From positions 119,186 through 183,185 of the forward strand of contig LDOQ01000071.1 of NCBI GenBank assembly GCA_001887945.1: 64,000 bases of DNA, given 5' to 3'. Positions 6,316 through 62,272 of the stretch are shown here, piece by piece. Each line of letters begins with the position of its first letter. Position 1 is the first letter of the stretch. Below the pieces are notes generated by a model. It was not told the origin of the DNA, did no database searches, and saw only the letters and a program-made list of their open reading frames with translations. The translations under genes were made by a program, and so were the position numbers. The DNA is from Spraguea lophii (taxonomy: Eukaryota; Microsporidia; Spragueidae).

Positions 6316-7407
6316 TTATTCAAATAACTTTTTTTTCATATCATAAACAGTATATTTCTCATCGAAAGTCATATCAAAGAAATTTTTCATTTTTATTATA
6401 TTTAGATTCTTTATTTCTATCGATTTACTAGTCCAAGTAAGAATAATTATTTTAAACTTAGTATCGATATTTTTATATAAACTTTTAGTATTCTCTAAAT
6501 CCCTTAAAATCCACATAATATCAGATACATTCTTAAATGTAAAATGTATTATATAATTTAATATATTAGAAGTATTTTCACGTATTAATATTTGCTTGAA
6601 ATCTGGATTGTTTTTATTTTTATAAAAAGGTACTAAAAATTGCTTCATATCTATAAGAGTATTATGTAACTTCATAAGAGATAAATAATGAGGACTATTC
6701 GCTCTTTTAGTTTGTTTTTTGTCCAAAAGAAACATTGCATTTATTATTTTATCTAAATTTACAACACCATCGATAAATTCTTTTTTGATATAATTTATAA
6801 AGGTGTAATAAAGATGTGGAATATCTGATATAATTTTCATTGTTTCACAATGTAATAACTCATATCCTATTATTCTTGTATATATTTCTGTAATTTGGGA
6901 TTTCTGTAAAAGAATTGACAAAGGTAAAATATATTTTCTTAAATCTGAATTAAAGTTATCATTCATTTTTTGATTCTTAATCCAACCTATGTGTTCAAAG
7001 TGTCTTTCAGTTATTTGTTCATCAGCTTGTAATAGATCACCAGGATGAATATACTTTTTCAACGCATTATATATTCGTTTAATTTTTGAATTTAGTATAT
7101 TATGATATTCTACAAAATAATCTATAATATTGTTATATAAATTTTCAGTGGTTTCTGAATTGTTTATTGCATTTTCAAATTCTGCTAATAGATCTTTTGG
7201 ATACTTTACTATATCATCAGCAAATTCAAATAATTCTAAAATAGTTGGTTTATTCAAAGAATATGGCAGAATATAATCTATATGTAGATCAAAATTCTTA
7301 TGTTCTATAAATATTTCATCATCTCTACCAAATTTAATAGTCCCGTCTGGCCCAGTGGTCGTGGGGTGGTAACCAAACCCCAAGCCTGGCGGGTTCGAAT
7401 CCCTCAT
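6316..7407 (-). pseudogene. Tandem-family gene, copy 1, 5' end lost to a SINE
   Basis: From 7338 down to 6316 this encodes a protein clearly paralogous to the copy at 7979-9055. Shared blocks are EHK-F-LHIDY-LP, INNS-TT--LY-N-I-YF, ILNSK, LYTRIIGYELL, KKEFID, WIL and a closing L--K---MFD---T--DM-K--F pattern. The family is unknown and may be secreted or effector-like. Directly before the homologous IKFGRDDE block the frame runs into the 5' head of a SINE inserted in the opposite direction. The first ATG of the surviving frame, at 7407, lies in the SINE B-box region, so a transcript could make a 363-residue chimera with 23 SINE-encoded residues. Remnants of the original 5' region appear beyond the SINE (about 7840-7960). 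I treat it as a disrupted gene; use of the chimeric start is possible but unproven. Confidence 0.6.
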
Positions 7408-7826
7408 CCAGAAAAAATTTTCAAAACAAAAAAAGAATAATAATAAACGGAGAAGAGAAGAAAAAGGTTGTTGAGTGGGTGAGGTTTCGATAGCGCAGCA
7501 TAGCTGTGCCTTGTATGACGGCCCCGCTACTAGATTAAAGTAGTGTTCAGCTGATGTAGTTGCAATCCCTGTATCGATTTGTGACTCGGCCAATACTATG
7601 CAACGAAAGAGGCTGGGAATTCCTTAAGAGCAGGGAGGGGCGGCGACGTGCGCCAGAAGAAAATTCCTAACGCTTTGGTCATAAGGTAAGATGAATTAAT
7701 GCATTTCTGTAGTGAAACCAGTTAATACAGGCTTAGATGTGCTTGAGGAACCGAAGGTTACGGACCATAATAGGCCGCAATCGGCCAGGGAACTTTGATA
7801 AATAAAAGTTTCATTAATAAAAAAAA
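7339..7826 (+). mobile_element. tRNA-derived SINE, copy 1 (near full length)
   Basis: The 5' end AGTCCCG is followed by an exact A box TGGCCCAGTGG (7348-7358) and an exact B box GGTTCGAATCC (7392-7402), at tRNA-like spacing. The short arms TCTGG and CCAGA close the tRNA-like head. A unique body of about 350 bp, strikingly GC-rich for this genome, ends in a perfect hairpin GGCCG-CAAT-CGGCC (7773-7786), a second weak hairpin around GATAAATA and an A-rich tail. It is nearly identical to the copy at 61782-62272. A convincing target-site duplication is not visible here. It sits antisense inside the gene at 6316-7338. Confidence 0.85.
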
Positions 7827-7978
7827 TTGTACCAACTAGCTTCAATATATATATAAATTATTCTTGCCTTAACTTATGTACTAAAATGTTAGAATTTTAC
7901 ATATGATACGCATATTATCAATTTTGATGTGATAATATTTCTAAATTCTCTTCTACTTTTTAAATAATTTTTAATTGT

Positions 7979-9249
7979 TTATTTAGAAAATATTTCTTTC
8001 TCCATATCATGACTAGTAAAACGCTTATCAAACAACATATTATAGATATTTTTTACTTTTTCAAGATTAAGATCTTTAATATGTATATCAGGCCATTTTC
8101 GTATGTTTTCAATCTTATTATTCATATTTGTACTAATGTCGTTTTCACCTTCATTTTCGGAATATAAAATCCATATAGCATCCAATAAATTTTTGCATAA
8201 GTCATTTTTAAAAAAATCCGATCTGTTGTAGTAAAAAGGAATTCTTAATATTTCACTTAAATTTATATTTTCTTGACCAATATAAAAATATTTTGAAAAA
8301 TGTTTCATTTTTATAAAAGTCTGGTGTACCGGAATAAGAGAAAAGGAATAACAGTCTCGAAATGTTATACGTCCTTCTATACCTACATGCAGAATAACAC
8401 TGAAAATATTACCCAAACATTTGAGACTATCGATAAATTCCTTTTTAATATTCTCGTGAAAAATATTGAAGAGATGTGGAATTATCTGTATTTGTGTGAT
8501 TATATTAAGATATAACAGTTCATAACCAATTATCCTTGTGTATAATTGTGTAGTTTCTATTTTTTGCATTAGAATAAACAAAGGTAAAAGATCTTCTTTT
8601 AAAATAATAGAAAAATCATCTCGCCCTTTTAACTTTCTATAGTGTATCATATGAGCAAAATGTTCTTTTGTTATAAGACAATTATTATCAGGATCAGGTA
8701 ATAAATTCGTAGGATCGAAATACACTTTCATTCTAAAATATATTTCCCTAACCTTGGAGTTTAATATTGTATGGGATTTTGCAAAATAAGCTATAAGATT
8801 ACAATATAATTCTTTAGTGGTTGTTGAATTGTTTATACACAATTCGAACTCTTTTGAAATATGTTTTGAGAAACTTATATGATCTTTATATTTACCATAC
8901 AATCTCTGGACACTTGGTATATCCAGGAAATCGGGCAGTAAATAATCTATATGTAAATTGAATTCCTTATGTTCAATATATATTTCATCATATTTACTGA
9001 ACCTAATATTTGTTAATGCAATACCATTATTTTCATATAATCCTATTATTCTTTCTTATTAAAAGAGGTACAATTTATATAAAACATCCTAATGTTTAAA
9101 TAAAATAAGAAATAACATAATGTATTACAAAATATTAATGAGAATCTAATGGAAAAGTTATCACGATTGTATATTTTATGCTGTATGATTGTATTATTCG
9201 GGTTTAAAATATTTGTATAAAAATGGTTTGTCGTGTGTATTGAACTCAT
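7979..9249 (-). pseudogene. Tandem-family gene, copy 2, broken near the 5' end
   Basis: The frame homologous to the 6316 copy is open from 9055 to 7979. It has no ATG before a Met about 100 codons in; its only early start-like codon is a TTG at 8902, which lies inside the homologous region. A second frame, from a real ATG at 9249 to a stop at 9046, carries a hydrophobic segment (around FSLIFCNTLCYFLFYL) that would suit a signal anchor. It overlaps the first frame by about 10 bp. A single frameshift between 9046 and 9060 would explain the split, so this is probably a recent pseudogene or a sequencing error. Gene function is unknown. It lies head-to-tail with copy 1. Confidence 0.55.
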
Positions 9250-9980
9250 AAAGAGGACTATGGAAGGAAATAATAGATATAATCCAGAAAGGGAAAGAAA
9301 TATATTTGTTTCCGGTATGCCTTTTTAATAAAATAGGAAATATCCATTATTTCAACTTTTTAATACCTTTGAAAATTTTCTTTAGAAAAAAATTAACCTA
9401 TTATATATGTATTTATTGTATTCTAAATTTTATTGTTAACTAATATAATATTAAAATATATAATATTATAAGTAAATTGTATACACTATTTTCAAATATT
9501 ATTATAAAAGGAAATTTTCCATTAAAAATTATACGTTGGTTTTATAATTATATAACTGATTATCAAAATGAATAATTATATTTCCTTCTATATCAAATAT
9601 GGTTTAGAAATAAATTATTATCTATATTTTACCTTAGAATTACTTTAATTCGAACATAAAATATTAATTACAGAATATAACATAACTCATACAAATGTTT
9701 TAAATTAATATCAAACATATAATAAATATTTTATTGTTATTTTATATTAAAATATATTTATACCATTTTTGAAACAATATTCCATAATCCAAACAATAAA
9801 ATATTTATATTACCTTAAAATAACATCCAATATTTATTTATCACTTATATTATTTATTGATAAATATATTTTAACAAATATTTAATTACTTTATTTAGAA
9901 GTTTCAATATATCACAATAATATATCAAATCTAAAATTTTGTTTCATATTACCTATAAATAAAAACATTGTTATAGTGAC
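9250..9980. other. Gene-free AT-rich divergent spacer
   Basis: It separates the minus-strand paralogue pair from the plus-strand gene at 9981. I see no motif or element. Confidence 0.55.
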
Positions 9981-12218
9981 ATGCAGAATTATTCACAATC
10001 ATCAAAAAATAACAATTCTACATTAACTAATTCCCAGAGGAAAATATTAACAGATCTAAAATCTAACATACCTTTTCGTATAAAGAAAGCATTGTCGCGT
10101 ATACATACTGTTTACCAAAGTGATCCCAATATATCTATGTATATGAATGAATGTATACGCTTAGCTTCTATAGATCAGAAGAAATATAATTTTACAGAAG
10201 ATGAATCAAAAGATATTAATGGTGCATTGTATTATTTGTTGGCTAGATCTGATAATTATACGCATCTTTTGCTTATAAATACATTATTGCAGAAAACAAA
10301 ACCAAAACTTGGATTTGATTTGGGAGATGATAAAGATATAGTATATGTATATGAGGTCTTGAAAAAAGTAAGAGAAAAAGAAATATTGGATTTTTTCCTC
10401 AAAGAATTGACTGAACCGTTTATTTTTCCATATGTTTACAATCTTTCAAAACAAATGTTTTTAGATCATAAATTTAGAGAAATATTATGCAAAAATATAG
10501 CCAACGTAGACTCTGAGTTAGATGTATATTTACAATCCATATACTACATATCATATATTGATGAACAAATATTAACACTTAAAGAAGTACTTGTTAACCT
10601 GGAGCTATGCCTAAGATTGTATAAGAGTGTAAGAACATATGAGTATGCTCCCAAAGCTATTGTAGCATTACTTAGAATGCTATTATATAGAAGATATAAA
10701 GAAAATTCTGTGATGTTTAAAACACCATTCAGTAATAATGATAAAAACGATAATGATAAAAAAGAACATGAAGGTAGTACAAGTAACAATAATATAAATA
10801 ATAATATAAATAATAACAAAATAAATGAAAGAAGTATCAATAATAGTAATACAAGTAATAATAATATAAATGATATAACCATAGGCATAGGTAATATGGA
10901 TATAAGTGGCAGGAATATAGAAGATATAAATAACAACAATCCAAACAATGAAGAATTAGAAAAAATAAAAAATAATATTTATAATAGCGCAGAAGAATAT
11001 AATGGAATATCCGAATCAGAAGACTTTCTATTAAATGACAGTAAAGATAATTTTATTAATAAAAGAAATAACAAACAAGAATATATTAATGAAACAGATA
11101 CTAACCAAACGAATGATTCAATAAATTATAAAATACCATTATCTCTCATAAAAAACATATCTCATCTGATACAACTACGTGACAAAGCACAAGAAAAAAT
11201 TAGTCTACCGGTAATGAAATCGAATAAACCCAAATTATCATATTCGGAAAAGATACATTCTATTCTTATTGAAATTGCTTCCACCGCAGATCCCATAATA
11301 GTATATTTTTCTATTAAACTACTTTACCACCTATCACTCATAGAACAAAAGCATATAACAACATTAACAATGTTTTTAGATAAAGACGAGCACATAAGCT
11401 ATCCATTCATGACACTCATAAAAGATATTATCACAAATATAAAACCTAAAGAAAACAATAAAAAGAATAATAATTTTATATTAAGCAATAGATTCTTTGC
11501 ATTCAAAAGTACAGATAATATTAGAATATTTAAAATCAAAATACAATTATTACTCATATTATTTAATGAATATGCCCGAAAAGAAATAGAATACGGTTTA
11601 AAAATCTATCCATTCATAGCATTAGAATACATAATAAAAGATCATATTACCAATAATAAACCAGATAATACAATAAACACGGGTACATCATACATTCTAA
11701 AAAAAGCCATAGAATATTGTTCATCCAAAAATAAAAATAAAACCTATGAAATATTATTCACCTATGAAAATAACACTAAAATATACAATATAATAAAAAA
11801 TATAATAAATAAAGAAGAATATAATAACAAACATAAAGAACAACCACCTACAAACAACAATAACCACCCACATATAGTATTATTAGCAAATATGGTTAAC
11901 AAAATACCAGATACAAGCCATCTATCAACAGAAGAAAAAATATATTTATATTTAGTATTATACAATAGAAAGATAATAAATAAAGATTATATAATGAGAT
12001 ACATAGAAGAATTATCTGTAGATCATAAAGAGAAATATAAATATATTATAAGCTATATAAACAATGATAATAATAATGATGATAGTAAAGAGTGTGGTGA
12101 TAAGGAGGGTGATATAAATAATGATGGGAAAGATTGTGATCTAAATAATAATGATATAATTAATAACAATAAAAAAGATGATGGTAAGGAGAGTGATATA
12201 AACAATAATAATAAATAA
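9981..12218 (+). CDS. Unknown helical protein with Asn-rich insert, 745 aa
   Basis: I do not recognise the family. Residues 15-245 form a well-behaved helical region with alternating Leu/Ile patterns, which would suit a HEAT or armadillo-like solenoid. Residues from about 250 to 375 are a low-complexity Asn/Ile/Asp insert. A second helical region (about 385-690) follows, then an Asn/Asp-rich tail with degenerate DGKE-DINNN repeats. There is no signal peptide or membrane span. The start is an ATG with no CCC motif nearby. The interrupted solenoid would suit a scaffold or transport adaptor, but that is an inference. Confidence 0.65.
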   Translation: MQNYSQSSKNNNSTLTNSQRKILTDLKSNIPFRIKKALSRIHTVYQSDPNISMYMNECIRLASIDQKKYNFTEDESKDINGALYYLLARSDNYTHLLLINTLLQKTKPKLGFDLGDDKDIVYVYEVLKKVREKEILDFFLKELTEPFIFPYVYNLSKQMFLDHKFREILCKNIANVDSELDVYLQSIYYISYIDEQILTLKEVLVNLELCLRLYKSVRTYEYAPKAIVALLRMLLYRRYKENSVMFKTPFSNNDKNDNDKKEHEGSTSNNNINNNINNNKINERSINNSNTSNNNINDITIGIGNMDISGRNIEDINNNNPNNEELEKIKNNIYNSAEEYNGISESEDFLLNDSKDNFINKRNNKQEYINETDTNQTNDSINYKIPLSLIKNISHLIQLRDKAQEKISLPVMKSNKPKLSYSEKIHSILIEIASTADPIIVYFSIKLLYHLSLIEQKHITTLTMFLDKDEHISYPFMTLIKDIITNIKPKENNKKNNNFILSNRFFAFKSTDNIRIFKIKIQLLLILFNEYARKEIEYGLKIYPFIALEYIIKDHITNNKPDNTINTGTSYILKKAIEYCSSKNKNKTYEILFTYENNTKIYNIIKNIINKEEYNNKHKEQPPTNNNNHPHIVLLANMVNKIPDTSHLSTEEKIYLYLVLYNRKIINKDYIMRYIEELSVDHKEKYKYIISYINNDNNNDDSKECGDKEGDINNDGKDCDLNNNDIINNNKKDDGKESDINNNNK

Positions 12219-12922
12219 TGTGATAATAAATGATAATAATAACAAACAGTGTGATGATATTATTAATCTACAAGACTATAAGAATATAAAAGTATAATTA
12301 ATAAATGTAGATATGTATAATTAAATATAAAATATTATTATTTGTTATTATTCTATTATAGATTATTATATTTTTATTCTTATTATAGATTATTATTCTA
12401 TTCTTTCTTTTTATATCATTATAATACCTATTACTTCCTTTTACCATCATTTTTATAGTTAACTTTTATTACTCCTTTATCTTTTTTTATTAGTATAATT
12501 ACTAACAATATTCTTTTTTTATCCTTTTTATTATCTCCCTATTATGTTTTTATCTATTATCTCTTTATTATCTATTCTTTCTTTTTATCTACTATTATAA
12601 ATTAATTTATCATCATTATAATACCTATTAAAAATTAATTTATCATCATTATAATACCTATTATCTCTTTTTATCATCATTTTAATTTATCACAATAAAT
12701 TTATCATAATATTTTTTTACCTCTTTTTTTTGTTTATACCTCCATTTTAATATTTTTTAATATTTTAAAAATTTGTATACACTTAAACATAATTTCTTGT
12801 CCATTATCCATAAAAACAAGAAATATGCACATTTATATTTTTTCTTCAAAAAAATATTTTATTTGTATTATTTACCTCTCTTTTTTACCTCCAAAATTAA
12901 AATATTTAAAGAATCTGCCCCA
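12219..12922. other. AT-rich spacer with a short direct repeat
   Basis: It contains a T-rich pyrimidine tract and two adjacent copies of an about 33-bp unit (ATTAATTTATCATCATTATAATACC...) at about 12600-12662. No gene was seen. Confidence 0.5.
12600..12662. repeat. 33-bp tandem direct repeat, two copies
   Basis: The unit begins ATTAATTTATCATC and ends in CCTATTAAAA. The second copy is truncated at its 3' end, and a partial third copy is visible near 12413. Confidence 0.6.
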
Positions 12923-21619: not shown

Positions 21620-21760
21620 ATAATTATAATACAATAGACCATAAGGTAAGATGTGATTAATGCATATATACAATGAAATCAGTTAATATAAATATAATAT
21701 ATATATTAAGAAACTAAATGATATATATCATGACTGATATTTAATTATTTCTCGCCCAAA
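21620..21760 (+). mobile_element. Decayed SINE fragment (3' body)
   Basis: ACCATAAGGTAAGATG, TTAATGCAT and ATGAAATCAGTTAATA align in order with the body of the intact SINEs (GTCATAAGGTAAGATG ... TTAATGCAT ... GTGAAACCAGTTAATA). The 5' head is not recognisable. Confidence 0.6.
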
Positions 21761-34604: not shown

Positions 34605-35035
34605 AAAGCCTATTTGGTGTAGTGGTGGTAGGTTTGCAATTAAGATTTACAAACAATATAATTTTTAAAATAAAGCAATAAAAAAATAAGTTAGATGGTA
34701 ATAATACGAGGGTATAACTTATATATAAAGTATATGATGTTTTTCATTCTAAATTAAAGTAGTAATTAATTTATGATGTTACAATTCCTGTATTGATTAA
34801 TGATTTGTCCAATACTATGCTAACTTCAAATTAAAATCATATTAAAACTGAAAGAATGATAATTTTGTTATACGTAAAATATTAATGCGCTGAAGTATAA
34901 GGAAAACGAAATTAATGTATATATGCAATAAAATCAGGTATTTACGAATTGTTCATAGTTTAGAAAACCAATAACCTCAAATAACAGTGAATGTAACTAG
35001 TTGGAATGTTTTTTATGGTAATTAAAATGGTATTT
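34605..35035 (+). mobile_element. Decayed SINE copy
   Basis: An A box TGGTGTAGTGG (34615-34625) fits TGGYNNAGTGG. The B box and part of the head are lost. Body blocks remain in order: CTAAATTAAAGTAGT, ATTCCTGTATTGATT, TTTGTCCAATACTATGC and AATAAAATCAGGTA. The A-rich tail is interrupted. Confidence 0.6.
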
Positions 35036-35122
35036 TAAAAAAATCAATAAAAATAACAAAATTAAATGGGAAGATTTTAAAAAAATGAAAAACACAATAC
35101 TACCTAAAATTAAACGAAAAAC

Positions 35123-35230
35123 AGTATGTATTTTAAATTTTAAATATATATTTTATGTAATGAATCTTCTATTAAAAAATGTCAAGAATAATGATCTTTT
35201 TATTTTAAATAATAACATTTGAAGAGAGGG
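35123..35230 (+). repeat. 5' flank shared with the pseudogene at 37573
   Basis: The 108 bp upstream of the start match 37466-37572 closely, including TAATGATCTTTTTATTTT. This shows that the tandem duplication included upstream DNA. Confidence 0.65.
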
Positions 35231-36664
35231 ATGGTTAACTTTTTTAATCTATTTATAATATGTACAACTTTGAATTGCGGGTTTCTACATAATATTAGGG
35301 CAGCAAATAATAATAATGATAAGAAAAAAACAAGAGAAATATTAATATTAAAAAATATTCAAGATGAAAAATATGAAATTAACGGTACAATTTCAGTTCT
35401 TTCAACAAATTCTACACAACCAAACAAACGTGTAAAAATTACTGAAATAAAATATGATGGTATTAAAATTCAATTTGTGGATAAAGACTATTCACCTATT
35501 AATATAACAGAATCCGAATTTCATAGAATAATGTGCGGAGATTTAAAATCAAATGATAACGATTATTATTTTAAATTTATCTCATTAGCTTTTAAAGTAA
35601 CAGCATTTATTGAGGAGAAATGTTTTCATACGACCTTATGGTATGATTGTCGCTCAAATTCAATGAAGATTTCTACTTCGTTACATGATCAACTTCCCAA
35701 ATCAATTCGTCTTCTTGGACCGAATCTTTTTTATAAATACATGATTCTAATACTCCCATTAAATTGTTTTGATAGTACCGCATGTTCTAATTCAAAATGT
35801 TCGGAAAAACAAAATATATACACTGTAGATATTTTAAGAGATGAAAAAAAAGAATATGGCTTATATAATTTAACAATTGATAAAGAATCAGAAACATATA
35901 ATATCGATTATTTTATATTTGATTATATTTTTTATTCAGAAGTATATACTAAAATTTATTGTGTGACAAGCGATCATGGAATGATTAAAGGATATATTGG
36001 GAAGTGCACAAACCAATGTAACATGAATGAAAAAATATTAGTTTCCTGTACAAAAACAAATAAACCACAAAATGAAAATAATTTGAAAAATCAAAATATA
36101 CCAGAAAATGCATCGACAATAACTAAAATATCACATAATACACAAACAGATGAAACGGAAAACCCTAATCTTGATTTAATAAATAAATGCCAATGTTGTC
36201 AAAAGAATGTTGAATGCAAAGAAACACGAGCAAATCTAGACGACTTGAATACGAAAGATTGTGAAGAATCAAAAAAAGAAAAGAAAATAGAAGAACGCCA
36301 CTCGTTTGTAACTTATGTTATATGTATCGGGGGTTTTATTACTCTTGTTATATCTTTTATTATTCATTGTGTTTATAAATTTATAAGATGGTGGAGGAAT
36401 AGAAGGAGGAGAAGGAATGAACCGGAGGAAATAGAATCTAGTGATGATGACGAAGATTTTAATATAGATGATGATAGTAGTGGCCCCGTTGAAGAGAGCG
36501 ATTTCGATGTAGCTGATATAAATTTTGATGATGAAGATAGTATTTTTGATAGTGATAGCAGCCCTTTACCACCACCATTACCAAGTGAGTATCCATTAGA
36601 TAATGAAGCAAACCTTACTGCATATTTTAGAAGACACGGATTGCTTAGGGATGATCGAAATTAA
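35231..36664 (+). CDS. Type I membrane protein with acidic cytoplasmic tail, 477 aa
   Basis: Family unknown. The N-terminal MVNFFNLFIICTTLNCGFLH is a signal peptide. A Cys-containing ectodomain (about 25-355) contains FIEEKCFHTTLWYDC and a CQCCQKNVEC cluster before the membrane. A single span (about 359-382, FVTYVICIGGFITLVISF) is followed by a strong basic stop-transfer (RWWRNRRRRRNEP). The tail is very acidic (DDDEDFNIDDD, NFDDEDSIFDSD), with a PLPPPLP motif that could bind SH3 or EVH1 domains and an RRHGLLRDDRN end. The start is the ATG at 35231; a TTG four codons earlier is ignored. There is no CCC motif. It is probably a surface or secretory-pathway protein; a role is not known. Confidence 0.7.
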   Translation: MVNFFNLFIICTTLNCGFLHNIRAANNNNDKKKTREILILKNIQDEKYEINGTISVLSTNSTQPNKRVKITEIKYDGIKIQFVDKDYSPINITESEFHRIMCGDLKSNDNDYYFKFISLAFKVTAFIEEKCFHTTLWYDCRSNSMKISTSLHDQLPKSIRLLGPNLFYKYMILILPLNCFDSTACSNSKCSEKQNIYTVDILRDEKKEYGLYNLTIDKESETYNIDYFIFDYIFYSEVYTKIYCVTSDHGMIKGYIGKCTNQCNMNEKILVSCTKTNKPQNENNLKNQNIPENASTITKISHNTQTDETENPNLDLINKCQCCQKNVECKETRANLDDLNTKDCEESKKEKKIEERHSFVTYVICIGGFITLVISFIIHCVYKFIRWWRNRRRRRNEPEEIESSDDDEDFNIDDDSSGPVEESDFDVADINFDDEDSIFDSDSSPLPPPLPSEYPLDNEANLTAYFRRHGLLRDDRN

Positions 36665-36735
36665 ATTTTAAAAGTTTATTAAAACTGTGTTATTTTTATA
36701 TATAAAATATTTATATTTAATTATATCATACTTCT

Positions 36736-37190
36736 ATTTTTTTATTAATGAAACCTTTATTCATAGGAATTTCCTGGCCAATTACGACATATTATGGTTT
36801 ACGACTTTTGGTTCCCAAAGCACATTTAAACCTATATTAACTGGTTGTGGGGATATATACACTAATCTCAGTTTCCCTTATACTCCAGAGCGTTAAAAAT
36901 TCGCGTATTATACACGTCGCCGTCCCTCCCGCTTTTTTAAAAATTATCAATCTCTTCCTTAAGATAATATTGACCGAGTTATAGGTCAACACAGGGATTG
37001 TATATACACCAATTAAATGCTACTTTAATCTGGTAATGAGAACGACATATAAGGCAAAGTTTATGCTATGATGTTGAATCCTCATCCCATTTAATAATTT
37101 TTCTTCTATTATTCATTTTTTTAAATTCTTTTGAGTGAGGGATTCGAAGCATTAGAGTTGGGATTTGGTTACCATCCCACGAGTATTTAA
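36736..37190 (-). mobile_element. SINE copy, moderately decayed, minus orientation
   Basis: Read on the minus strand: GGGATTCGAAGC-type B box remnant, CCAAATCCCAACTC, ATTAAAGTAGCAT, CAATCCCTGTGTTGACC, the GGACGGCGACGTGTA segment and a T-rich 5' side on the plus strand for the A tail. It lies directly after the end of the near-identical tract of the neighbouring gene. Confidence 0.75.
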
Positions 37191-37465
37191 TTAAATTTCT
37201 TTTGGGAAGATTTATTTTAAAATAATTATATCCAATCCTTTTGAACATCTGTGTAACTAACTCATGGATCAGTTATATGTTAAAACAATAAAACAAATTT
37301 GATTAATACATATGTATATATAATATTTATTAGTATTTTTTTATAAAATAATAAAATTAAACAAAGAAGTTTTTTTTTAAAAATAAAAAATAAATATTAG
37401 AAAATTTCTTTTTTAAAAACTTACAAAATTGAATACATTATTATCTGAAATCAGATAAAACCCAA

Positions 37466-37572
37466 TATGTATTCTAAATTTTAATTATATAATGGATACA
37501 CTGGATCTTCTATTAAAAGAATGTCAAAAATAATGATCTTTTTATTTTAAATAATAATATTCAAAGAAAGGC
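37466..37572 (+). repeat. 5' flank shared with the gene at 35231
   Basis: Counterpart of 35123-35230. It is followed by the pseudogene ATG. Confidence 0.6.
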
Positions 37573-39037
37573 ATGATTAATTTTTTAAATTTATTCATAA
37601 TAGTTATAACTTTAAATTATGACGGTTTTCTACAAAATATTAAGGCAACGAATAATAATATTGGCAAGAAGGAAATAAAAAAGATATTAACATTAGAAAC
37701 TATCCAAGAAAAAAAATATGAAATCGACGGGTACAGTTTTATTTCGTTCGGCGTCACATTCTACATGTGAAAAAAAATGTGTGAAAATTACTAAAATCGA
37801 ATATGATGGTATTGAAATTCAATTTTCAAACAAACAGTCTCCCAGCGTAAATATAGAAGAGCCTGAGTTTCATAGAATAGTAAGTGGGGATTTAAAATCA
37901 AATGATCATGATTATCGTTTTAAAATTATCTCGTTAGTTTTTAAAGTAACAGCATTTATTGAAGAAAAATGTTTCCATACAACCTTATGGTATGATTGTT
38001 CTATAGAACCAATAAAGATTTCGACCTCATTACACGATCAACTCCTCAAAGCATTTCATCTCTTTAGGTCGAATTTTTTTTATAGGTGCATATTTTTAAT
38101 GCTCCCGTTGAATTGTTTTGATAATATCGCATATTCTAATTCGGAATGTTCGGAAAATCAAAATATATACGAGATAGATGTTTTAAAACCCGAACAAAGA
38201 AAATATATTTTGTGTAATTTAACAATTGATAAAGATTCAAAGGTTTATAATATCAATCATTTTACATTTGATTATATTTATTCAAATGTATATACTAAAA
38301 TTTATTATAAGACAATCGATCATAGAATGATTGAAAGATATATTGGAACGAATTCGAACCAATGTAACATGTATGAAAACGTATTGGTTTCCTGCACAAA
38401 AACAAATAAAGCACAAAATAAAAATAATAAAAATATAATACAAAATTAAAATAATTTGAAAAATCAAAATATATCAGAAGATACATTAACAATGACCAAA
38501 ATAACACATAATACACAAACAGATTAAATCGAAAACCTCAATCTTGATTTAATAAATAAATGCCAATGTTGTCAAAAGAATGTTGAATGCAAAGAAACAC
38601 GAGCAAATCTAGACGACTTGAATACGAAAGATTGTGAAGAATCAAAAAAAGAAAAGAAAACAGAAGAAAGCCACTCGTTTGTAACTTATGTTATATGTAT
38701 CGGGGGTTTTATTACTCTTGTTATATCTTTTATTATTCATTGTGTTTATAAATTTATAAGATGGTGGAGGAATAGAAGGAGGAGAAGGAATGAACCGGAG
38801 GAAATAGAATCTAGTGATGATGACGAAGATTTTAATATAGATGATGATAGTAGTGGCCCCGTTGAAGAGAGCGATTTCGATGTAGCTGATATAAATTTTG
38901 ATGATGAAGATAGTATTTTTGATAGTGATAGCAGCCCTTTACCACCACCATTACCAAGTGAGTATCCATTAGATAATGAAGCAAACCTTACTGCATATTT
39001 TAGAAGACACGGATTGCTTAGGGATGATCGAAATTAA
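37573..39037 (+). pseudogene. Tandem pseudogene of the 35231 membrane-protein gene
   Basis: It is co-linear with 35231-36664. The ATG and signal peptide are kept (37573). An extra G in a G run near 37727-37732 shifts the frame, so the first frame ends at 37770. The ectodomain continues in the next frame and is then cut by in-frame TAA codons at 38447-38449 and 38524-38526. After that the frame is open again to 39037, covering the CQCC cluster, membrane span and acidic tail. The 5' two thirds have diverged noticeably in protein, yet the 3' 560 bp are almost identical to the intact gene, with only two substitutions noticed. That is typical of gene conversion. No complete product can be made. 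Confidence 0.8.
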
Positions 39038-39103
39038 ATTTTAAAAGTTTATTAAAACTGTGTTATTTTTATATATAAAATATTTATATTTAATTATATC
39101 ATA
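38540..39103 (+). repeat. Near-identical 3' tract (gene conversion), partner 36167-36730
   Basis: About 564 bp at a constant offset of 2373 bp, including 66 bp beyond the stop codon. The only differences noticed are near 36289 and 36297. Confidence 0.8.
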
Positions 39104-39839
39104 TTTATGTTTAAAAAACAATATAAATATTTTTTTAAAAAAAGTTCTTGTTTATAATTTGTTTGTAATATTCCATAAATAATTTATATTCTTTATAATT
39201 TAAATTATATATATATTAATAATATTTAACATTTCTTATGAAATATAAGAATTCAAAATATTTTTATTTGTTTCAAATAAAGTTGTATATTTTTCAAATA
39301 AGGTTTGTTTATATTATAAACAAATCAATTTGGTAGATAAATTAAAAACCATACGTTAATCTATCAAAGATATATAACGATTCTTCTTTAGCATATCCTA
39401 GACTAAAAATTATTCTATTTTTAATATAAATTAATTTTATTTTTTAACTAAAAATAATTATTATCGAAAATTATATTTAAATATAATAATCTGAAGAAGA
39501 ATTAAAAATAAATGATTAATATAATATATTTAAAAAAAATTACGACGTTAAAATCTATAATCAGTTAATTATAAACCTTGAATTGATATAAAAGAATAAA
39601 TAAAAATAATTCCTGTTTATATCACTTTTTTAAGCTATAGAAATTAAAAATATAGTAATGAAACATAAGAATCTCAAGAAATTTTTTATCACTTTTTCGT
39701 TTGACTTTCCTTTATTAAAAATATATCTTAACACAAAAAACAATCATAAAGTTACTCTTTTATAAAATTGTGTTTATAATATTTTAAATTACTATTCAAA
39801 TTTTCCATATTAAAATATAGTTTTATGAGTATGATAGAT
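39104..39839. other. Gene-free AT-rich stretch
   Basis: No coding or mobile signature was seen. Confidence 0.5.
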
Positions 39840-55525: not shown

Positions 55526-55955
55526 AGTTTTTATTTAACGAAGTTTTCGGACGGTCGCGGCCTACAATGGCCTTTGGTTATTAAGGTATGTTTAAACTTG
55601 TACTTATTGGTTTCATTTTATTCCATACCCACATATTTGGACTTTGTATATGGAACGATTATCATTCGATCTGGTTTAATAGGGTTAGAATTTCCCTTTT
55701 TAATATAATACTGGCCAAATCATAAATCAACACGGGGATTGAAATTATGCCAGCTAAACTTTATTTTAATCTGATATCGGATCCACCGTACAAAATATAA
55801 TTAATCTTATGATCAAAGTCGTACCCACCCAACAACCTTCTTCCTCTCTTCTCCTCTTCTGCTTTTCATTTTATTTTTTGAAAATTTTCTGGTGTGAGGG
55901 ATTCGAAATCCTTAAGTCTGAGATTTAGTTACCATCTCATGTTCACACAACTAAA
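55526..55955 (-). mobile_element. SINE copy, minus orientation, forming an inverted pair
   Basis: On the minus strand: GATTTCGAATCCCTCACACC (B-box remnant), the AGAAGAGGAG purine stretch, TTTAATCTGATATCGG, GGGGATTGA and the GGCCGCGACCGTCC hairpin region near the 3' end. Several dozen substitutions separate it from copy 1. It faces the 54960 copy with about 80 bp between them. Confidence 0.75.
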
Positions 55956-56083
55956 TAGGCAATTACACATAAAATTATATAAGAAGAAATTAAATAAATA
56001 AAAAAATTATGTTTTTAACTTTTATTCAGATCATTTTTACTTTCGACATTGACGTTTAACTTATTTTTAAATATCTAATCAAA

Positions 56084-56608
56084 TCAAATATCTAGAGGTG
56101 GTTGTCTTTTATCAAAAGGCAAAAACCGATATCTATAGATAGGATCTCGCATTAAATATGTATCCTGACGAAAGTCAAACTCATTACTTTCGTCGGATTC
56201 CGAAGAAACATATAAACCTTTTGCAGTATCATACTTACGTTTTTTTATTCTGTCTTTTTTTGGAGGGTTTTTAATTATTTCGTTATTTGAAGATTGATCA
56301 TCATATTCGAAATAAGATATAAATTTTGAACACAAATCATATACATATTTTTTAACACATGAATTTATCATCCATATCGAATTTTGGTGTTGTTGTATTG
56401 TTTCGTTTTTTTCAATTTTGTTATGAATCTCATTATTTTCTTCATCCAAACAACTTTTCGAATGGATATCTTCTTTAAGATCTGGCGATTTATCTAAAAC
56501 AAGATCTTCAGAATGATTATTGAGACCTGTTTTTTGTTTTAATATCTGAGACGAATAAATCTTATTAACAATAAAAATAAATATTTTCAATGTTATACAA
56601 ATCTTCAT
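56084..56608 (-). CDS. Small probable secreted protein, 174 aa
   Basis: The ATG at 56608 starts MKICITLKIFIFIVNKIYSS, a good signal peptide. A non-ATG codon 33 nt upstream is ignored. The mature part is hydrophilic with four Cys, an ENNEIHNKIEKNE acidic stretch, a KNPPKKDRIKKRKYD basic patch and a Tyr/Arg-rich C-terminus (DPIYRYRFLPFDKRQPP). No family is recognised. There is no CCC motif. The neighbours are SINEs on one side and transposon relics on the other, which is typical for lineage-specific secreted genes. Confidence 0.55.
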   Translation of the reverse strand: MKICITLKIFIFIVNKIYSSQILKQKTGLNNHSEDLVLDKSPDLKEDIHSKSCLDEENNEIHNKIEKNETIQQHQNSIWMINSCVKKYVYDLCSKFISYFEYDDQSSNNEIIKNPPKKDRIKKRKYDTAKGLYVSSESDESNEFDFRQDTYLMRDPIYRYRFLPFDKRQPPLDI

Positions 56609-57409
56609 GATCTTAACAATACCAATTCCTTTTATACACAATATTTACAATTAATTAACCAAATATAAAAAAACAAAAAGGAAATGCGACTTTATGGTAA
56701 ATTAAATTATTTTTTATATAAAACATTTATTATTTAAAGAAAGGATTTTTATCTATTTTGGATTCACAGGATTAAAATTTGATTTCTATATTTAAATAAT
56801 ACTCGGATCACCAATGGATGTGTTTATATACAACATCATCCACTTTATTTTAAATTAAAATTTCGTATATTTAAAACGACTTCTAGCATTTGTTAGATTA
56901 AAACTGTTTTAATATATTATAAATGATGACTAATATTAATATCTTGAGATTATTACACGATTTAATATACAATCAAAGATATAAATTAGTAATAAATAAA
57001 AATACTTACTTTTTAAGGCATATTACATTTTTAAGGGGTATTGATGATAAACTCTAAGGAAATTTTTATTTTTATTCTATTTCTTTTGTCGAACACATAT
57101 ATTATAACATTTTTTCGTAAAAAGAATCTCAATATGTCAAAGTTATATTCTTATTTAAATTTTCTATTAAAGCGTATATCTAAATAATATTCTGTATTTA
57201 TTATTTAATTTACTCAATCCATCCATATATCCCAATATTTTATATTAGATTTAAAAAAGGTAAATATACTGGAAGTTTAATATTATAAAAAATTTGTGAT
57301 ATAATAATCGACAAATATAAAATACTATTTAAAATTTAAGGAGTTGTCTTTATCCGAATACAAAATTAATTGGATAACAATGATGTAATATTTACTTGCT
57401 TATACATAT
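56609..57409. other. Gene-free AT-rich stretch
   Basis: No ORF or element was recognised. Confidence 0.5.
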
Positions 57410-57550
57410 TCTAGTCATTAGATTAAAACAATGTTTGATTAACTTTGTATTGATTATCGATCCAGTCAGTACTATGCTATAAAAGAACTATGAATTTGGT
57501 TAGGACTTAGCAGAGGAAAAGCGACGTAGATTTTTATACGTGAAGTATAT
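57410..57550 (+). mobile_element. Decayed SINE fragment (central body)
   Basis: TCATTAGATTAAAACAATGTT, GTATTGATTATCGATCCAGTCAGTACTATGC and AGCAGAGGAAAAGCGACGTA align in order with the intact SINE body (CTAGATTAAAGTAGTGTT, GTATCGATTTGTGACTCGGCC..., GCGACGTG). Confidence 0.6.
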
Positions 57551-58149
57551 GAAAAATCGAAGATTTATTATATTAATCTATCAAAAAATCTATGATGCGT
57601 AAAATCTAACTTTTTTTTATTTTCACCAGAGGGGAATAAAACTTTCTATTTGTATATTATTACTAGAGTATTACATCTTTGGATAAAATTAAGGACATCC
57701 AAAAAACAAACATGTATAAATAAAAAATGAAATTTATTCATATTAAAATATTATATAATATATTATTTTTTCTTGATTTCCGATTGTTTCTATATATTAA
57801 TATTTTGAAAAAATCACTGTTTTTTTGAATAATCCCGAATGTAAAATTAAGTCTCCTCAACAGTAAAAATCAAATATTAGATAAAAATAATTATATAAAT
57901 ATGTTTATTATAAGAAATAAAAATCTTTATTACCGTATTCATGATTTATGGGATAATTTCTTAAATAATAATGATACATTGATCGTGAAATTACATGGTC
58001 ACAAAAGTTTTGTTAAAGACCAGATTTAGTTAATAAATTATACTTAGAAAATTTATGATGGAAACCGTTTTATTTAATATCCAATTTTTTAAATATCTAC
58101 AAGAAGAAAATCATTCTTTGATAGATATTGTTTAATACATCAATCATTT
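57551..58149. other. No recognisable gene; possible LTR
   Basis: If the gypsy relic is read correctly its 3' LTR would begin at about 58188 and run leftward into this stretch. A second LTR for comparison was not found. Confidence 0.3.
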
Positions 58150-60450
58150 ACTTATTAGCAATCCCCTCATTTAATTATGTATATAACATTCCGCCCCCTC
58201 GAAAGAAAAAACCCACCTTAATAATTTAATATTTTAATGTCCATTCTGGAAAGCCTGTTTATTCTTCCATATTCACAATATCAAGGTTAATGTAAACTTT
58301 CGTTATTTTATGTAAGCTTGCATAACAATGTTTGGTTTTATAATATATCATATTTTTTCATATATACTTTATCATTTATTTGTAATGTTCTATCTTTTAT
58401 CTTTTCATTGGATTTCCCGATTATACTTTTAATATATTCATTTCGGTTCTTAATGTATTCTAATACTTTATTATTTTTTTTTGTTGATGATTCTAATATT
58501 TTTAATGAAATATGATGTATGGAAATATTATAATAATCGTTGATATTGTTTTCAATTCTTTTAAAATAAAAGATAATAGCTTGTAAGATAAAATCTTTAT
58601 AATCTTAACGGCTATTTGGTTGAATCTTTTTGAGATTCAATTTGAGTCAGGTTATACGTAAAAATTAATCATGGTTTATCTTTAAACCAGATAAATATTT
58701 TTTAAATCCCGACCTTATATATTAACGTCCATTATCTGTTATCAGTTATTGGGCATTTCGTATTTTTTAAAAAATAATTTAAAGCCTGTTTTCGACGACA
58801 TCCTTTGGAAACTGTAAACATCTGTGAACCTATAAAAGGTATTTGTTATTAATAAAATACTAAAATTATTTGAATTTAAGGACAATTGAAACACAAACCT
58901 TGAAAAATCTTATTAAATCGCATTAATAACTTTAAAAGGTCTAGTTACAGATATAATTTCTTCATTTTTCCATAGTTTTTTTGGCATAGTTCGCCTTTAC
59001 TGATCATGCTCTGAAGTTGTTCATAAGTTATGTTTTTTAGAATTCAATAATTATGAAAGTTCATGTCGTTCCTGATGAGCATAAACTTGATGTCGTTTTA
59101 ATATTGCAATAGTGTTGGAATGTTTTCTCTCCAAGATAAAACATCTAGATAAGAAAGTGACGGCAATATTATTTGTTCCTTTAATATATTATACGATAAG
59201 TCATAAGATATGAGATGTTCTTCTCATTTTGCAATTTTTTGAAGATGGATTTTTACTAGGGAAATTAAGTTTTTGTTGTGTACACTTATAATGATATTAA
59301 CACAGGAAAAAAGTGTTTTGAATCTTTCGATCGTTTTATATATAACGTAAAATCATTTTTCTATTATTGAATATTTATGCTCGGTTTCATTTGATTTATG
59401 AATTTAAATAGACACCACTCATGTTTTCGATATACAACACTGCTAATAATTGAATTAAAAACATCCATTTCCAATAAAAATCCTTTTTTATAATCGAATT
59501 TAAGAATAGATTCTTCTCCAACTCCGACGACAATATTTTTTCCGGCATTCTTTTTTTCATAAGTTCAGGAATACGACAAGCGTAATTTAATTTATTAGTT
59601 AAAAGGTATTTTTATAGACGTTTAAAATTTTTTGTAATTGTTTCTTACTGGTCGAATGTTTATATTCGTATATTCACTGATTTTGTAAGTTTTGAAACAC
59701 ATTCTTTTTCGCAGATAAAATATTCTAGATAATCGAGTTATTTCCGTCAGAATTCGGATTTACATAAATTTATATCATTATGTTTTTTCTTAATAAAGAT
59801 AATACCACCTTTACATATTCTAAATACTTTCCTCTTGTTTCAGTATATATAAGTATATCATTTAAAAAAAATTAACGCAAGTTTGGAGTACTAATATATT
59901 ATCCATTGCACATTGAAATAATCGGGAGTAGTTATTAAGCCCAAAGATAATCTAGTAAGTTCATATGATCTCCTAAAATTTAGAAGACTGCATACATCAT
60001 TGATTCTTGGTTTATCGCAATTTAGGATATCCCAAATTTAAATTATATTACAAAAATAATGATATCGAGAATATGTTTAAGGCATTCACAAGATTTGCAT
60101 ATAAGTAAAGACATTACGCCGGAAATTTATCAAGTATAACATAAACAACAGCCGTTTTCCTTTGGAACAGAGAAGGCAGGAAATATATGTCGAAGTCTAC
60201 TTTTTGTATTATATTCTCGTCTAAAGATATATATTAGATTTTATCTTTTAATCCGAATTTATAAAGAGTTAAATGGTGTTCTTTCTTGGTTTGAAATCGA
60301 AATTTTAACTTAAATTTTATGTTCGAAATCTTTATAACGTCCAACATTATCTTATAATTTGTATTTAGAAAGAATTTCATTTAATTTTATTTGTTTCAAA
60401 AATAATATTTTATGGGTTATTCCCGAGTTACTATATATGGGTACCCATTC
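58150..60450 (-). mobile_element. Ty3/gypsy-type LTR retrotransposon relic
   Basis: Minus-strand fragments follow the pol order. At about 60200-60030: KTAVVYVILDKFPA ... NALNIFSISLFL (RT blocks resembling KTRVV-DYR-LN and KIFS-IDFKSGY). At 59950-59885: FGLNNYSRLFQCAMDNIL (the PFGL-NAP--FQ-AMD-IL block). At about 59860: MIYLYI in place of the YLDDILI active site. At about 59400-59340: ETEHKYSIIEK (RNase H TE--YSI-EKE). Stops and shifts are frequent. At the far end a GAGGGGGCGG purine stretch (58191-58201) directly precedes TGTTATATA, which looks like a polypurine tract and the start of a 3' LTR. It is inactive. Confidence 0.7.
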
Positions 60451-60589
60451 AACTTTAAACCATCTTCCATTTAATTTAATAAAACACCAATTTTTGTTTT
60501 TTTTGGGATAATATTATTCTAAAACGTATGAAAAATTTACATCGCAAATTAAGATATTTATCAAGAGAATAAAAGTGATACATGAATAA

Positions 60590-61610
60590 TCATACGAATA
60601 TAAAAAGCAAGACAATTATAATCATTACACCTCGAAAAAATGAAAAAAATATCAAACAAACTGAGAGTAAGAGTTATATTATTAAAAAATAAAAAATATA
60701 CAGTCAAATCATGAAAAACGTCCTTAATATAAAATTCCAAACACTATACGGTATGTTAAGGATCTTTAATTGGGAAGGTCTAATAAAAAAAGAAGATTTG
60801 ATGTAATAATCTAAAAAATTAAATATTAAGAAGAGGAAGAATATAATTTCAAAAGTTAGAGAGTTTGTTATTATAGTACAGCAAAATCTCGTAGAACACA
60901 GAACGTGAAATCTAATGTACGAGTAAACAAATTTACAATAGATCGTGCATTACACGATGTTATCTTTACTGTGAAAAAGGTTTCGACTATTCCTGAAAGG
61001 AAAGGCGATGGAAATACAAGAGATGTTTATCAAAAAATAATTCGATAAGATATTAAAAATAGGTTATAAAAATTTTATTTTTGTAAATACAATGGATTTT
61101 AATGTTTTTATGAATGCGAACATGGCTGTTCTCCTAAAAACACCCCGTTAACATGATGGTGTCAAATATAGGAACAAAAATACATCTGTAATAACATCAG
61201 TTAATAAGTATTGAAAAATATATTATTACTTTAATTATTATCCCGTAAATGGAGTTGATTTTAACAATTATATTATCAGATTACTAGAAAAATATTCAGA
61301 AAAAGGTATATCACAACTTATTTTAATAATTGACAATGCTAGAATACATCATTATTTTGAAGTGAAATGAGTAAAATATAATATAGAAGTATAATATTTG
61401 CCCTTATACTCATCCCAACTTAATATCATTGAGAATTGTTTTGGTAAATGAAAAATTATGTTGCACAGCAAAAAGTAAATAATGAAAGGGAATCGAATAA
61501 TTCTATTTAAATGAATTTAAAGAAATAATTGAAAAGGATCTTACTGAGTACTGTAAAAAGTTTTTAAGAGTTACCGATATGTGTAAACAAAAAATTCATT
61601 AATTCATTAA
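60590..61610 (+). mobile_element. IS630/Tc1-type transposase relic
   Basis: Plus-strand fragments: LIKKEDLM ... LNIKKRKNIISKVREFV (N-terminal helix region), NTMDFNVFMN (first Asp block, -DE--F---), LILIIDNARIHHYFEV (second Asp block at about 61320) and LPLYSSQLNIIENCFG (third block ending in the catalytic Glu, at about 61410). The last two blocks keep good similarity, but stops break the frame. The SINE at 61782 sits about 170 bp downstream. No terminal repeats were identified. Confidence 0.65.
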
Positions 61611-61768
61611 ATTTTATTGTTTTATTAAATTAAAAGGAAAATTCTATAATTTAAAAATCGAATTAAAAGTAGTTATAAGTATAATTAAAAAATTTATACC
61701 TTCACGTTTTGTAAAAAATTTACAGAAACGAAATTATTTGAAGAAATTTAATAAATATAAAACAATTA

Positions 61769-61781
61769 ACTTTCAATTACA
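61769..61781. repeat. Target-site duplication, left copy
   Basis: ACTTTCAATTACA, identical to 62273-62285 on the other side of the SINE. Confidence 0.85.
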
Positions 61782-62272
61782 TTTTTTTTTTAATGAAACT
61801 TTTATTTATCAAAGCTTCCTGGCCGGTTGCGGCCTACCATGGTCTGAGACCTTCGGTTCCTCGAGCGAAATTAAACTTGTACTAACTGGTTTCGCTACAG
61901 ATATGCATTAATCTCATCTTACCTTATGCTCCAGAGTGTTAGGATTTTGCGTCTGGTGCGCGTCGCCGCCCCCACTTCCAGCTCTTAAGGAATTCCCAGC
62001 CTCTTTCGTTGCATAGTATTGGCCGAGTCACAAATCAATACAGGGATTGCAACTACATCAGCTGAACACTACTTTAATCTAGTAGCGGGGCCGTCATACA
62101 AGGCACAGCTATGCTGCACTATCGAAACCTCACCCACTCAACAACCTTTTTCTTCTCTTCTCCGTTTATTATTATTCTTTTTTTGTTTTGAAAATTTTTC
62201 TGGATGAGGGATTCGAACCCGCCAGGCTTGGGGTTTGGTTACCACCCCACGACCACTGGGCCAGACGGGACT
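61782..62272 (-). mobile_element. tRNA-derived SINE, youngest-looking full-length copy
   Basis: On the minus strand it begins AGTCCCGTCTGG, with exact A box TGGCCCAGTGG and B box GGTTCGAATCC, and ends with GGCCGCAACCGGCC, GATAAATAAAAGTTTCATT and an A run of 10. It is flanked by a perfect 13-bp duplication. It differs from copy 1 at only scattered positions; the hairpin loop changes from CAAT to CAAC while the stem is kept. It appears to be 491 bp long. Confidence 0.9.

What the first reader, a model, noticed from the sequence alone, without database searches (positions are those of the whole stretch)
7339..62272. A tRNA-derived SINE family in a microsporidian-type genome
Copies lie at 7339, 34605, 36736, 47190, 54960, 55526 and 61782, with fragments at 21620 and 57410. 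The intact ones have exact polymerase III A and B boxes (TGGCCCAGTGG, GGTTCGAATCC), a tRNA-like closed head, a constant body of about 350 bp and an A tail. Known transposons of microsporidia are mostly LTR elements, Merlin, piggyBac and Tc1-like. I do not recall a described SINE family, but I could not search the literature. The copies span a wide range of ages, so amplification was long-lasting.
Basis: partly seen in the sequence, partly recalled or inferred. Interest (0 to 1): 0.88.

Follow-up and report, generated by a model that had tools for sequence, protein, structure and literature searches.

The report
tRNA-derived SINE family in a microsporidian
A short parasitic DNA element has copied itself many hundreds of times through the small genome of a microsporidian parasite, apparently borrowing the copying enzyme of a larger element in the same genome, and some older copies sit right behind tRNA genes.

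Summary
The 5.27-Mb genome holds hundreds of copies: the 40 scored of 464 candidates are 97-100% identical to the 61782 copy. Sampled density gives about 890 copies (505-1443), about 5% of bases. Of 27 young copies, 22 have exact 9-16-bp target-site duplications: a true retroposon. Polymerase III A and B boxes lie in tRNA register, but the head does not score as a tRNA.

New here: (1) the SINE's 3' part shares a module of about 55 bp (84%), which folds into two hairpins, with the 3' UTR of a LINE in the same genome. That LINE is the likely mobiliser. (2) Seven of 57 tRNA genes have a SINE starting 8-20 bp behind them, all in the same orientation; about 0.3 expected. This resembles Dictyostelium TRE3 and Skipper-2, but involves under 1% of copies, and survival rather than targeting remains a strong rival. 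Open-access searches found no described SINE family in microsporidia, only a 0.18% "SINE" line in a Nosema table.

The parts
61782..62272 (-). Young SINE copy (reference copy of this report), head at 62272, tail at 61782
   Evidence: 40 scored genome copies at 97-100%, itself included; profile 61792-62269, 550 bits
62253..62263 (-). Polymerase III A box, TGGCCCAGTGG exact
62209..62219 (-). Polymerase III B box, GGTTCGAATCC exact
61814..61861 (-). LINE-like 3' module (approximate bounds), two predicted hairpins, shared with the 3' UTR of the resident LINE
   Evidence: 72% over 97 bp to L050 1307-1401, E 4e-10; 84% over 55 bp at other places in the genome; fold; bounds read
61782..61791 (-). A tail (T run on the + strand)
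61769..61781 (.). Target-site duplication, tail side (ACTTTCAATTACA on +)
62273..62285 (.). Target-site duplication, head side (ACTTTCAATTACA on +)
7342..7815 (+). Full-length SINE copy, 94.5% to the young consensus, no target-site duplication detected
7756..7930 (-). Older antisense SINE fragment overlapping and adjoining the 3' end of the previous copy
   Evidence: 54.6 bits, E 1e-16
21625..21694 (+). SINE fragment (profile 326-395)
   Evidence: E 3e-10
34723..34941 (+). Partial SINE copy (profile 163-387)
   Evidence: E 2e-30
36747..37184 (-). Older SINE copy between two tandem paralogous genes
   Evidence: 328 bits
47204..47582 (+). Old SINE copy (profile 17-428)
   Evidence: 146 bits
54967..55435 (+). 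Older full-length SINE copy, 75% to the young consensus
   Evidence: 352 bits
55522..55959 (-). Older full-length SINE copy, about 87 bp from the previous one, tail to tail
   Evidence: 266 bits
57415..57544 (+). SINE fragment (profile 186-323)
   Evidence: E 4e-8

Best explanation
A tRNA-related SINE family of about 480 bp plus A tail, resident in a microsporidian genome for a long time and active until recently. Polymerase III transcribes it from its internal A and B boxes (inferred). Its 3' part shares a module, predicted to form two hairpins, with the 3' UTR of an APE-type non-LTR retrotransposon (LINE) in the same genome. The LINE's reverse transcriptase most likely recognises that module and copies the SINE by target-primed reverse transcription, leaving mostly 12-16-bp target-site duplications and an A tail (duplications and shared module shown; recognition inferred). 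Insertion is largely dispersed in intergenic DNA, with a small but sharp excess at a point 8-20 bp behind tRNA genes, same orientation (excess shown; active targeting inferred).
For: Copies: the 40 scored of 464 first-look candidates are 97-100% identical over nearly the whole query; density 16 hits per 95 kb (window 9 per 64 kb, ten pre-set control stretches 7 per 31 kb), about 890 copies, 5.4% of bases. Retroposition: 22 of 27 young copies have exact duplications of 9-16 bp, 21 of them 12-16 bp, and each of the 27 ends in an A-rich tail ('young' = 470 bits or more, two of them only 92-95% to the consensus); two tRNA-adjacent copies start at profile position 268 and 316. Promoter: exact A and B boxes in tRNA register. 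LINE partner: SINE nt 367-461 versus LINE 3' UTR, 72% over 97 bp, E 4e-10; of 11 places with the LINE's C-terminal coding end, 8 run on in one unbroken match through the module, and one more, the decayed L051, aligns through it; similar two-hairpin folds in SINE and LINE. LINE identity: a 479-aa frame with endonuclease and the start of a reverse transcriptase; residues 360-467 match LINE-1 ORF2p in the PDB, E about 1e-9. tRNA excess: 7 of 57 tRNA genes, expected 0.32 at intergenic density, Poisson P 5e-8. 57 of 57 tRNAs have a T run behind them, and 6 of the 7 SINEs follow one of 5 or more, but only 5 of 61 SINEs elsewhere do (LINE loci left out), so a T run alone is not the target.
Against: Transcription and mobilisation were not observed. 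Of the 11 LINE C-terminal places, two (C34, C5) were not seen with the module; only 40 of 106 candidates were scored there. The module ends about 135 bp before the LINE's own A tail, so the SINE does not carry the whole LINE 3' end; the resemblance of the last about 25 bases of both is weak (E 0.009, A-rich). The fold is not more stable than shuffles for the SINE (z -0.4), moderately so for the LINE (z -1.6), and is lost in the decayed L051. No LINE copy was seen with endonuclease, reverse transcriptase and 3' end in one piece. The side, distance and orientation used for the tRNA test were chosen after seeing the data; counting both sides and both orientations within 30 bp the expectation is 1.26 and P 3e-4, and with the upper limit of the density the one-sided P is 1e-6. 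None of 27 young copies sits directly behind a tRNA, and only 7 of about 890 copies do, so targeting, if real, is weak or past.
Confidence: 0.82

Rival explanations
1. The copies behind tRNA genes mark survival, not targeting: insertions are random, and the gap just behind a tRNA terminator is one of the few places in a gene-dense genome where a SINE does no harm.
For: 54% of the window is open reading frame; all seven tRNA-adjacent copies are old (73-91% identity); under 1% of all copies are there; 0 of 9 LINE 3' copies lying away from contig ends are within 1 kb of a listed tRNA.
Against: The count is about 20 times the intergenic expectation; all seven share one orientation and one 12-bp distance band; the stretch from 30 to about 1500 bp behind the same tRNAs carries same-orientation copies at about the background rate (6 in roughly 80 kb).
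Confidence: 0.4
2. The SINE is mobilised by another reverse transcriptase, for instance the second, decayed LINE on contig C48 or an L1-like enzyme that only needs an A tail; the shared module is an ancestral leftover with no role.
For: A second diverged LINE exists, 40% identical; the SINE ends in plain A, which relaxed L1-type enzymes use (established knowledge); the module is not at the LINE's very 3' end; its predicted fold is not exceptional.
Against: The module is 84% alike between LINE and SINE while the flanking parts of the two 3' regions are not recognisably alike; the C48 LINE is riddled with stops; 0 of 22 target-site duplications begin with AAAA, as L1 endonuclease sites would.
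Confidence: 0.2
3. The repeat is not a SINE but a DNA transposon derivative (MITE, Helitron) or a solo LTR with chance polymerase III boxes.
For: Length 480 bp and high copy number would fit a MITE.
Against: No terminal inverted repeats between GTCCCG... and ...TTTCATT-A(n) (read in the sequence); duplications vary in sequence and length, mostly 12-16 bp; A tail of variable length; A/B boxes in tRNA spacing; copies that start inside the element; shared 3' module with a LINE, and no such match in the LTR-element loci L009-L011.
Confidence: 0.02
4. The repeat is a structural RNA gene family or its pseudogenes (for example 7SL- or 5S-like).
For: GC-rich (46%) in a window of 22% GC, polymerase III boxes.
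Against: No Rfam match at gathering thresholds in the window; in 20 loci with young copies only an RNase P gene beside one copy; 5S genes are 9 separate loci. 7SL was not sought apart from these Rfam scans.
Confidence: 0.03

Closest known systems
tRNA-derived SINEs with a LINE-shared 3' tail (eel UnaSINE1/UnaL2, salmonid SmaI/RSg-1; recalled, not fetched)
   Same: Polymerase III boxes in a tRNA-related head, unrelated body, 3' part shared with a resident LINE and able to form hairpins, target-site duplications
   Different: Here the shared module is internal to the LINE 3' UTR, about 135 bp before its A tail, and the head no longer scores as a tRNA; host is a microsporidian
Entamoeba EhSINE/EhLINE pairs (recalled; PMC3716655 seen in search listing and abstract start only)
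   Same: Non-autonomous element tied to a resident LINE in a parasite
   Different: EhSINEs are not, as recalled, tRNA-headed with canonical A/B boxes; different hosts
Dictyostelium TRE3 and Skipper-2 (PMC5911963, passages; PMC5006619, abstract and section list)
   Same: Insertion behind tRNA genes in a compact genome; TRE3 in the same orientation as the tRNA; Skipper-2 at 8-23 bp
   Different: Those are autonomous non-LTR and LTR elements named for this preference; here a SINE, at 8-20 bp, and under 1% of its copies
Fungal SINEs such as Foxy (Fusarium) and Mg-SINE (Magnaporthe) (recalled)
   Same: SINEs in the fungal lineage
   Different: No sequence comparison made here; those are ascomycete elements
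Unnamed 'SINE' class, 28,669 bp or 0.18%, in Nosema bombycis (PMC3614468, table passage)
   Same: Microsporidian host
   Different: In the passage seen it is a repeat-class line only: no family, structure, tRNA head or LINE partner

Membership tests
tRNA-type SINE | Short non-coding element, dispersed in high copy | tested here: met
   about 480 bp; the 40 scored of 464 candidates >=97%; about 890 estimated; no long frame of its own in the window's ORF list
tRNA-type SINE | Internal A and B boxes at tRNA spacing near the 5' end | tested here: met
tRNA-type SINE | Head descends from a tRNA (similarity or cloverleaf) | tested here: inconclusive
   Best tRNA-Arg(tcg) score 38; shuffled-head maxima 30 (young) and 34 (old); tRNA to best other-isotype tRNA minimum 34, median 60; no Rfam tRNA match at 7300-7500
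tRNA-type SINE | Target-site duplications of variable sequence | tested here: met
   22 of 27 young copies >=9 bp
tRNA-type SINE | 3' A-rich or simple-repeat tail | tested here: met
tRNA-type SINE | Polymerase III transcript | not testable with these tools
   no RNA data
LINE-partnered (3'-tail-sharing) SINE | 3' part homologous to the 3' region of a resident LINE | tested here: met
   but the shared part is not the LINE's last bases
LINE-partnered (3'-tail-sharing) SINE | Mobilised in trans by that LINE's reverse transcriptase | not testable with these tools
   needs a retroposition assay
TRE3-like tRNA-gene-targeted element | Insertion behind tRNA genes, same orientation | tested here: met
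   in excess of chance at 7 of 57 tRNA genes, 0.32 expected; under 1% of copies; excess is not proof of targeting
TRE3-like tRNA-gene-targeted element | Distance of 40-150 bp (PMC5911963 passage) | tested here: not met
   8-20 bp here; nearer to Skipper-2's 8-23 bp
TRE3-like tRNA-gene-targeted element | Autonomous non-LTR element | tested here: not met
   a short element without a frame of its own
MITE | Terminal inverted repeats, fixed-length target duplications | tested here: not met
   sequence ends; duplications 9-16 bp

The most novel reading that the evidence does not exclude
A LINE/SINE pair in microsporidia has acquired polymerase III-gene targeting on its own: the integration complex is drawn to the 3' side of transcribed tRNA genes, and, because each SINE carries a B box, to older SINEs as well, so that every insertion creates a new harmless landing site. 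This would be tRNA-gene targeting by a SINE, and a further independent origin of the strategy known from dictyostelids and yeasts.
Probability: 0.25. Interest if true: 0.82.

Novelty: new variant of a known kind. Interest (0 to 1): 0.62.

Why it matters
Microsporidia are the textbook case of genome reduction; a SINE that fills about 5% of a 5.3-Mb genome and was recently active shows that even a small microsporidian genome can carry a SINE/LINE parasite system. The shared module makes the LINE partnership testable, and the excess behind tRNA genes offers a new lineage in which to ask whether compact genomes repeatedly drive retroelements to polymerase III genes.

Tried and rejected
Naming the parent tRNA: alignment of a young and an old head consensus to the 57 tRNA matches of the genome gave only tRNA-Arg(tcg) somewhat above shuffles, carried by the A and B boxes. 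Not accepted as a firm parent.

A TT|AAAA (L1-type) target: 0 of 22 duplications begin with AAAA. Annealing of the A tail to the tRNA terminator's T run: it would put the SINE tail, not the head, next to the tRNA (inference from target-primed reverse transcription), whereas all seven have the head or truncated 5' end there. T runs as the target by themselves: 5 of 61 SINEs away from tRNA ends follow one; random 25-mers of the window hold one in 11%.

Closeness to 5S and U6 genes: the nine 5S genes and the single U6 gene were compared by eye with the SINE places listed, which are only a part of all copies; none of those is closer than about 750 bp. SINE beside SINE: 6 of 27 young copies have another SINE within 100 bp (L002, L004, L006, L007, L096 and the 7342 copy) against 2.0 expected at intergenic density, P 0.016 (one search gave 0.05 for 5 of 27, leaving out the 7342 copy): suggestive only. 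The first tRNA table had the wrong strand for minus-strand tRNAs of L018-L047; one search replaces it. An exact 25-base pattern of the SINE's 3' module in IMG/VR: nothing. Copies in other microsporidia could not be searched: no eukaryotic genome collection is on hand.
Full report
OBSERVATION. Ten matches have E <= 4e-8; the next best in the window is 0.12, and the reversed window gives one match, E 2.3. Nine of the ten were checked against the 26 non-overlapping ATG-started frames of at least 100 aa kept, with one frame trimmed where it runs into a SINE (6316-7407, see 'noticed'): none overlaps (57415-57544 lies outside those frames by its coordinates). Exact A and B boxes are present in two copies.

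ORGANISM. The window is 64 kb of a 183-kb contig in an unnamed 5.27-Mb, 73-contig assembly. Its lysyl-tRNA synthetase is closest, among named microsporidian proteins, to Hamiltosporidium (60%), Trachipleistophora (60%) and Encephalitozoon (59%): a microsporidian with no close named relative in that list.

GENOME-WIDE. The genome search scored only 40 of 464 candidates; 40 rows are 97-100% identical to the query (one of them the query itself), and 6 further rows are older neighbours or pieces at 72-91%. Two older copies used as queries bring in further sets, mostly 69-80%. Density: 9 hits in the window (64 kb) and 7 in ten 3.1-kb stretches set beforehand at round coordinates (31 kb), together about 890 copies (505-1443) and 5.4% of bases (the 57415 fragment, found later, is not counted). 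The window came to me because of this finding, but its density is lower than that of the control stretches. Distinct copies in hand run from 99.6% to about 68% identity to the young consensus, and GC falls with age from 46% to about 20%, as expected under AT-biased mutation. The 25 youngest copies differ from their consensus by 0.4-1.9% and share several two-state sites, so more than one source copy may have been active.

RETROPOSITION. Of 27 young copies with flanks (470 bits or more; two of them only 92-95% to the consensus), 22 have exact target-site duplications of 9-16 bp (21 of them 12-16); five do not (7342 in the window, L032, L099, L102, L103; best match 4-8 bp). Nearly all end in ...GTTTCATT, mostly a short linker (CGT or CAT), and a run of 6 or more A; L095 and the second copy in L036 differ slightly before the A's. 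The duplications have no evident common sequence.

HEAD. The two boxes align in register with tRNA positions; the element starts 8-10 bases before the A box. The best tRNA of the genome is Arg(tcg), score 38 against shuffled-head maxima of 30 and 34. ARAGORN sees no tRNA in the window; Rfam none in the window at gathering score and none at 7300-7500 at E <= 5. At a relaxed setting ARAGORN reports an unassigned tRNA in the old consensus and none in the young one.

LINE PARTNER. A reverse-transcriptase search found 9 places. L009-L011 are Ty3-type LTR elements with protease, reverse transcriptase and integrase pieces (read by eye). L017 (contig C72, first 1.6 kb) is a LINE frame of 479 aa with endonuclease and the start of the reverse transcriptase; Pfam matches are below cut-off, but residues 360-467 match human LINE-1 ORF2p, E about 1e-9, and the three best database relatives, endonuclease proteins, are 29-39% identical. 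LINE C-terminal coding pieces lie at 11 places. In L050 the frame ends and the 3' UTR contains a stretch 72% identical over 97 bp to SINE nt 367-461 (E 4e-10). The decayed L051 aligns to L050 right through this stretch, and L051's locus also holds the reverse-transcriptase part at 66%, which ties the C-terminal pieces to the L017 type. A search with the L050 3' UTR (40 of 106 candidates scored) finds 8 of the 11 C-terminal places running on in one unbroken match through the module; C34 and C5 do not appear, nor does L051's place. Two more LINE 3' pieces (C8, C6) begin just inside the module and four (C2, C4, C9, C11) beyond it. A further 27 places match only its inner 49-55 bp at 84-86%; 14 of these coincide with SINE copies seen, the other 13 I did not check. 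In both elements the stretch is predicted to fold into two neighbouring hairpins, though the SINE's fold is no more stable than shuffles (z -0.4; LINE z -1.6), and L051's has lost it. The LINE's own A tail lies about 135 bp further on, so the SINE holds an internal module plus, perhaps, the last about 25 bases (weak, E 0.009).

tRNA GENES. The 57 tRNA matches found (63 of 485 candidates scored) were all examined, most with about 1.5 kb on each side, some less at contig ends. Seven have a SINE beginning 8, 12, 12, 13, 15, 18 and 20 bp after the tRNA match (Ala, Asn, Leu, Ile, an intron-containing tRNA at L072, one at L080, and Lys), all in tRNA orientation, two of them lacking the 5' half or two thirds, all old (73-91%). 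The L080 tRNA match stops short of the full model, so its distance is a few bases less. Expected at intergenic density: 0.32, P 5e-8; at the upper limit of the density P 1e-6; counting both sides and both orientations within 30 bp, 1.26 expected, P 3e-4. Side, distance and orientation were chosen after seeing the data. No SINE lies within 50 bp on the 5' side. Within 250 bp there are 15 matches at 13 of 57 tRNAs. Two of the seven show possible duplications of 8 bp that contain the T run (L032, L024; read by eye, T-rich and so weak; L024 has no A run directly before it); for the other five I could not make one out. The excess is sharp but accounts for under 1% of copies, and survival of harmless insertions remains a strong rival.

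LITERATURE. Open-access library only. Searches: 'microsporidia' with 'short interspersed' (30 of 33 listed), with 'SINEs' (16 listed), 'microsporidia/transposable elements/LINE/Nosema' (30 of 37 listed), 'microsporidian/SINE/retrotransposon', 'microsporidian genome/SINE/LINE/LTR', 'Hamiltosporidium/SINE' (none). No listed paper names a SINE family in microsporidia in its title or abstract start; most were not opened. A 2013 Nosema bombycis table gives SINE 28,669 bp, 0.18% (PMC3614468, passage). Word searches inside PMC4202319, PMC12558613, PMC13174016, PMC12449221 and PMC7313128 found no 'SINE' (main text only, supplements not open to me). LINEs in microsporidia are known (PMC4202319 and PMC13174016, passages). 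tRNA-gene targeting: PMC5911963 (passages) and PMC5006619 (abstract and section list); [quoted passage not shown]

MECHANISM. Shown: dispersed copies, duplications, A tail, boxes, shared module, excess behind tRNA genes. Inferred: polymerase III transcription, recognition of the module by the LINE enzyme, target-primed reverse transcription, and any active recruitment by the tRNA transcription complex.

CHECK. Confidence in the main explanation went from 0.83 to 0.82 for the two LINE places without the module; other odds stand.

Noticed in passing
G000 C63:348, C11:348, C61:891, C21:1427 (all +), C34:232150 (-, contig length 233589): Five LINE C-terminal pieces lie within about 1.5 kb of a contig end with the 5' side facing the end and the 3' side inward; C63:11886 (-) may be a sixth (contig length not seen); the C72 frame at a contig start is the other way round. 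This looks like a subtelomeric LINE, in the orientation known (recalled) from Drosophila telomeric elements.
   Followed up: partly
window 6316-7407 (-): The ATG that opens this frame lies inside the antisense head of the SINE at 7342; similarity to its paralogue at 7979-9055 (39%) begins just beyond the SINE edge. The SINE may have cut or re-started the gene.
   Followed up: partly
window 35122-36741 and 37463-39112: Tandem duplication, 85% identical, of a gene with an apparent membrane segment (by eye), with an old SINE between the copies.
   Followed up: no
L002:1173-1406 (-): Nuclear RNase P RNA gene about 90-110 bp from the tail of a young SINE.
   Followed up: no
L009, L010, L011: Ty3-type LTR retrotransposons, some frames long and open, others interrupted.
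   Followed up: no
G000 C56:36-90, C54:36-90, C15:36-90, C22:157-211: Several contigs seem to begin inside a SINE (only the 3' module was matched), so the family may break the assembly and be undercounted there.
   Followed up: no
L012, C48:24138-25818: A second, diverged (40%) and heavily decayed LINE, with a young SINE beside it.
   Followed up: no
L071, L072, L069, L080: tRNA genes with apparent introns: one with about 40 extra bases after an anticodon-like TAT, and a likely tRNA-Tyr with a short insert (read by eye).
   Followed up: no
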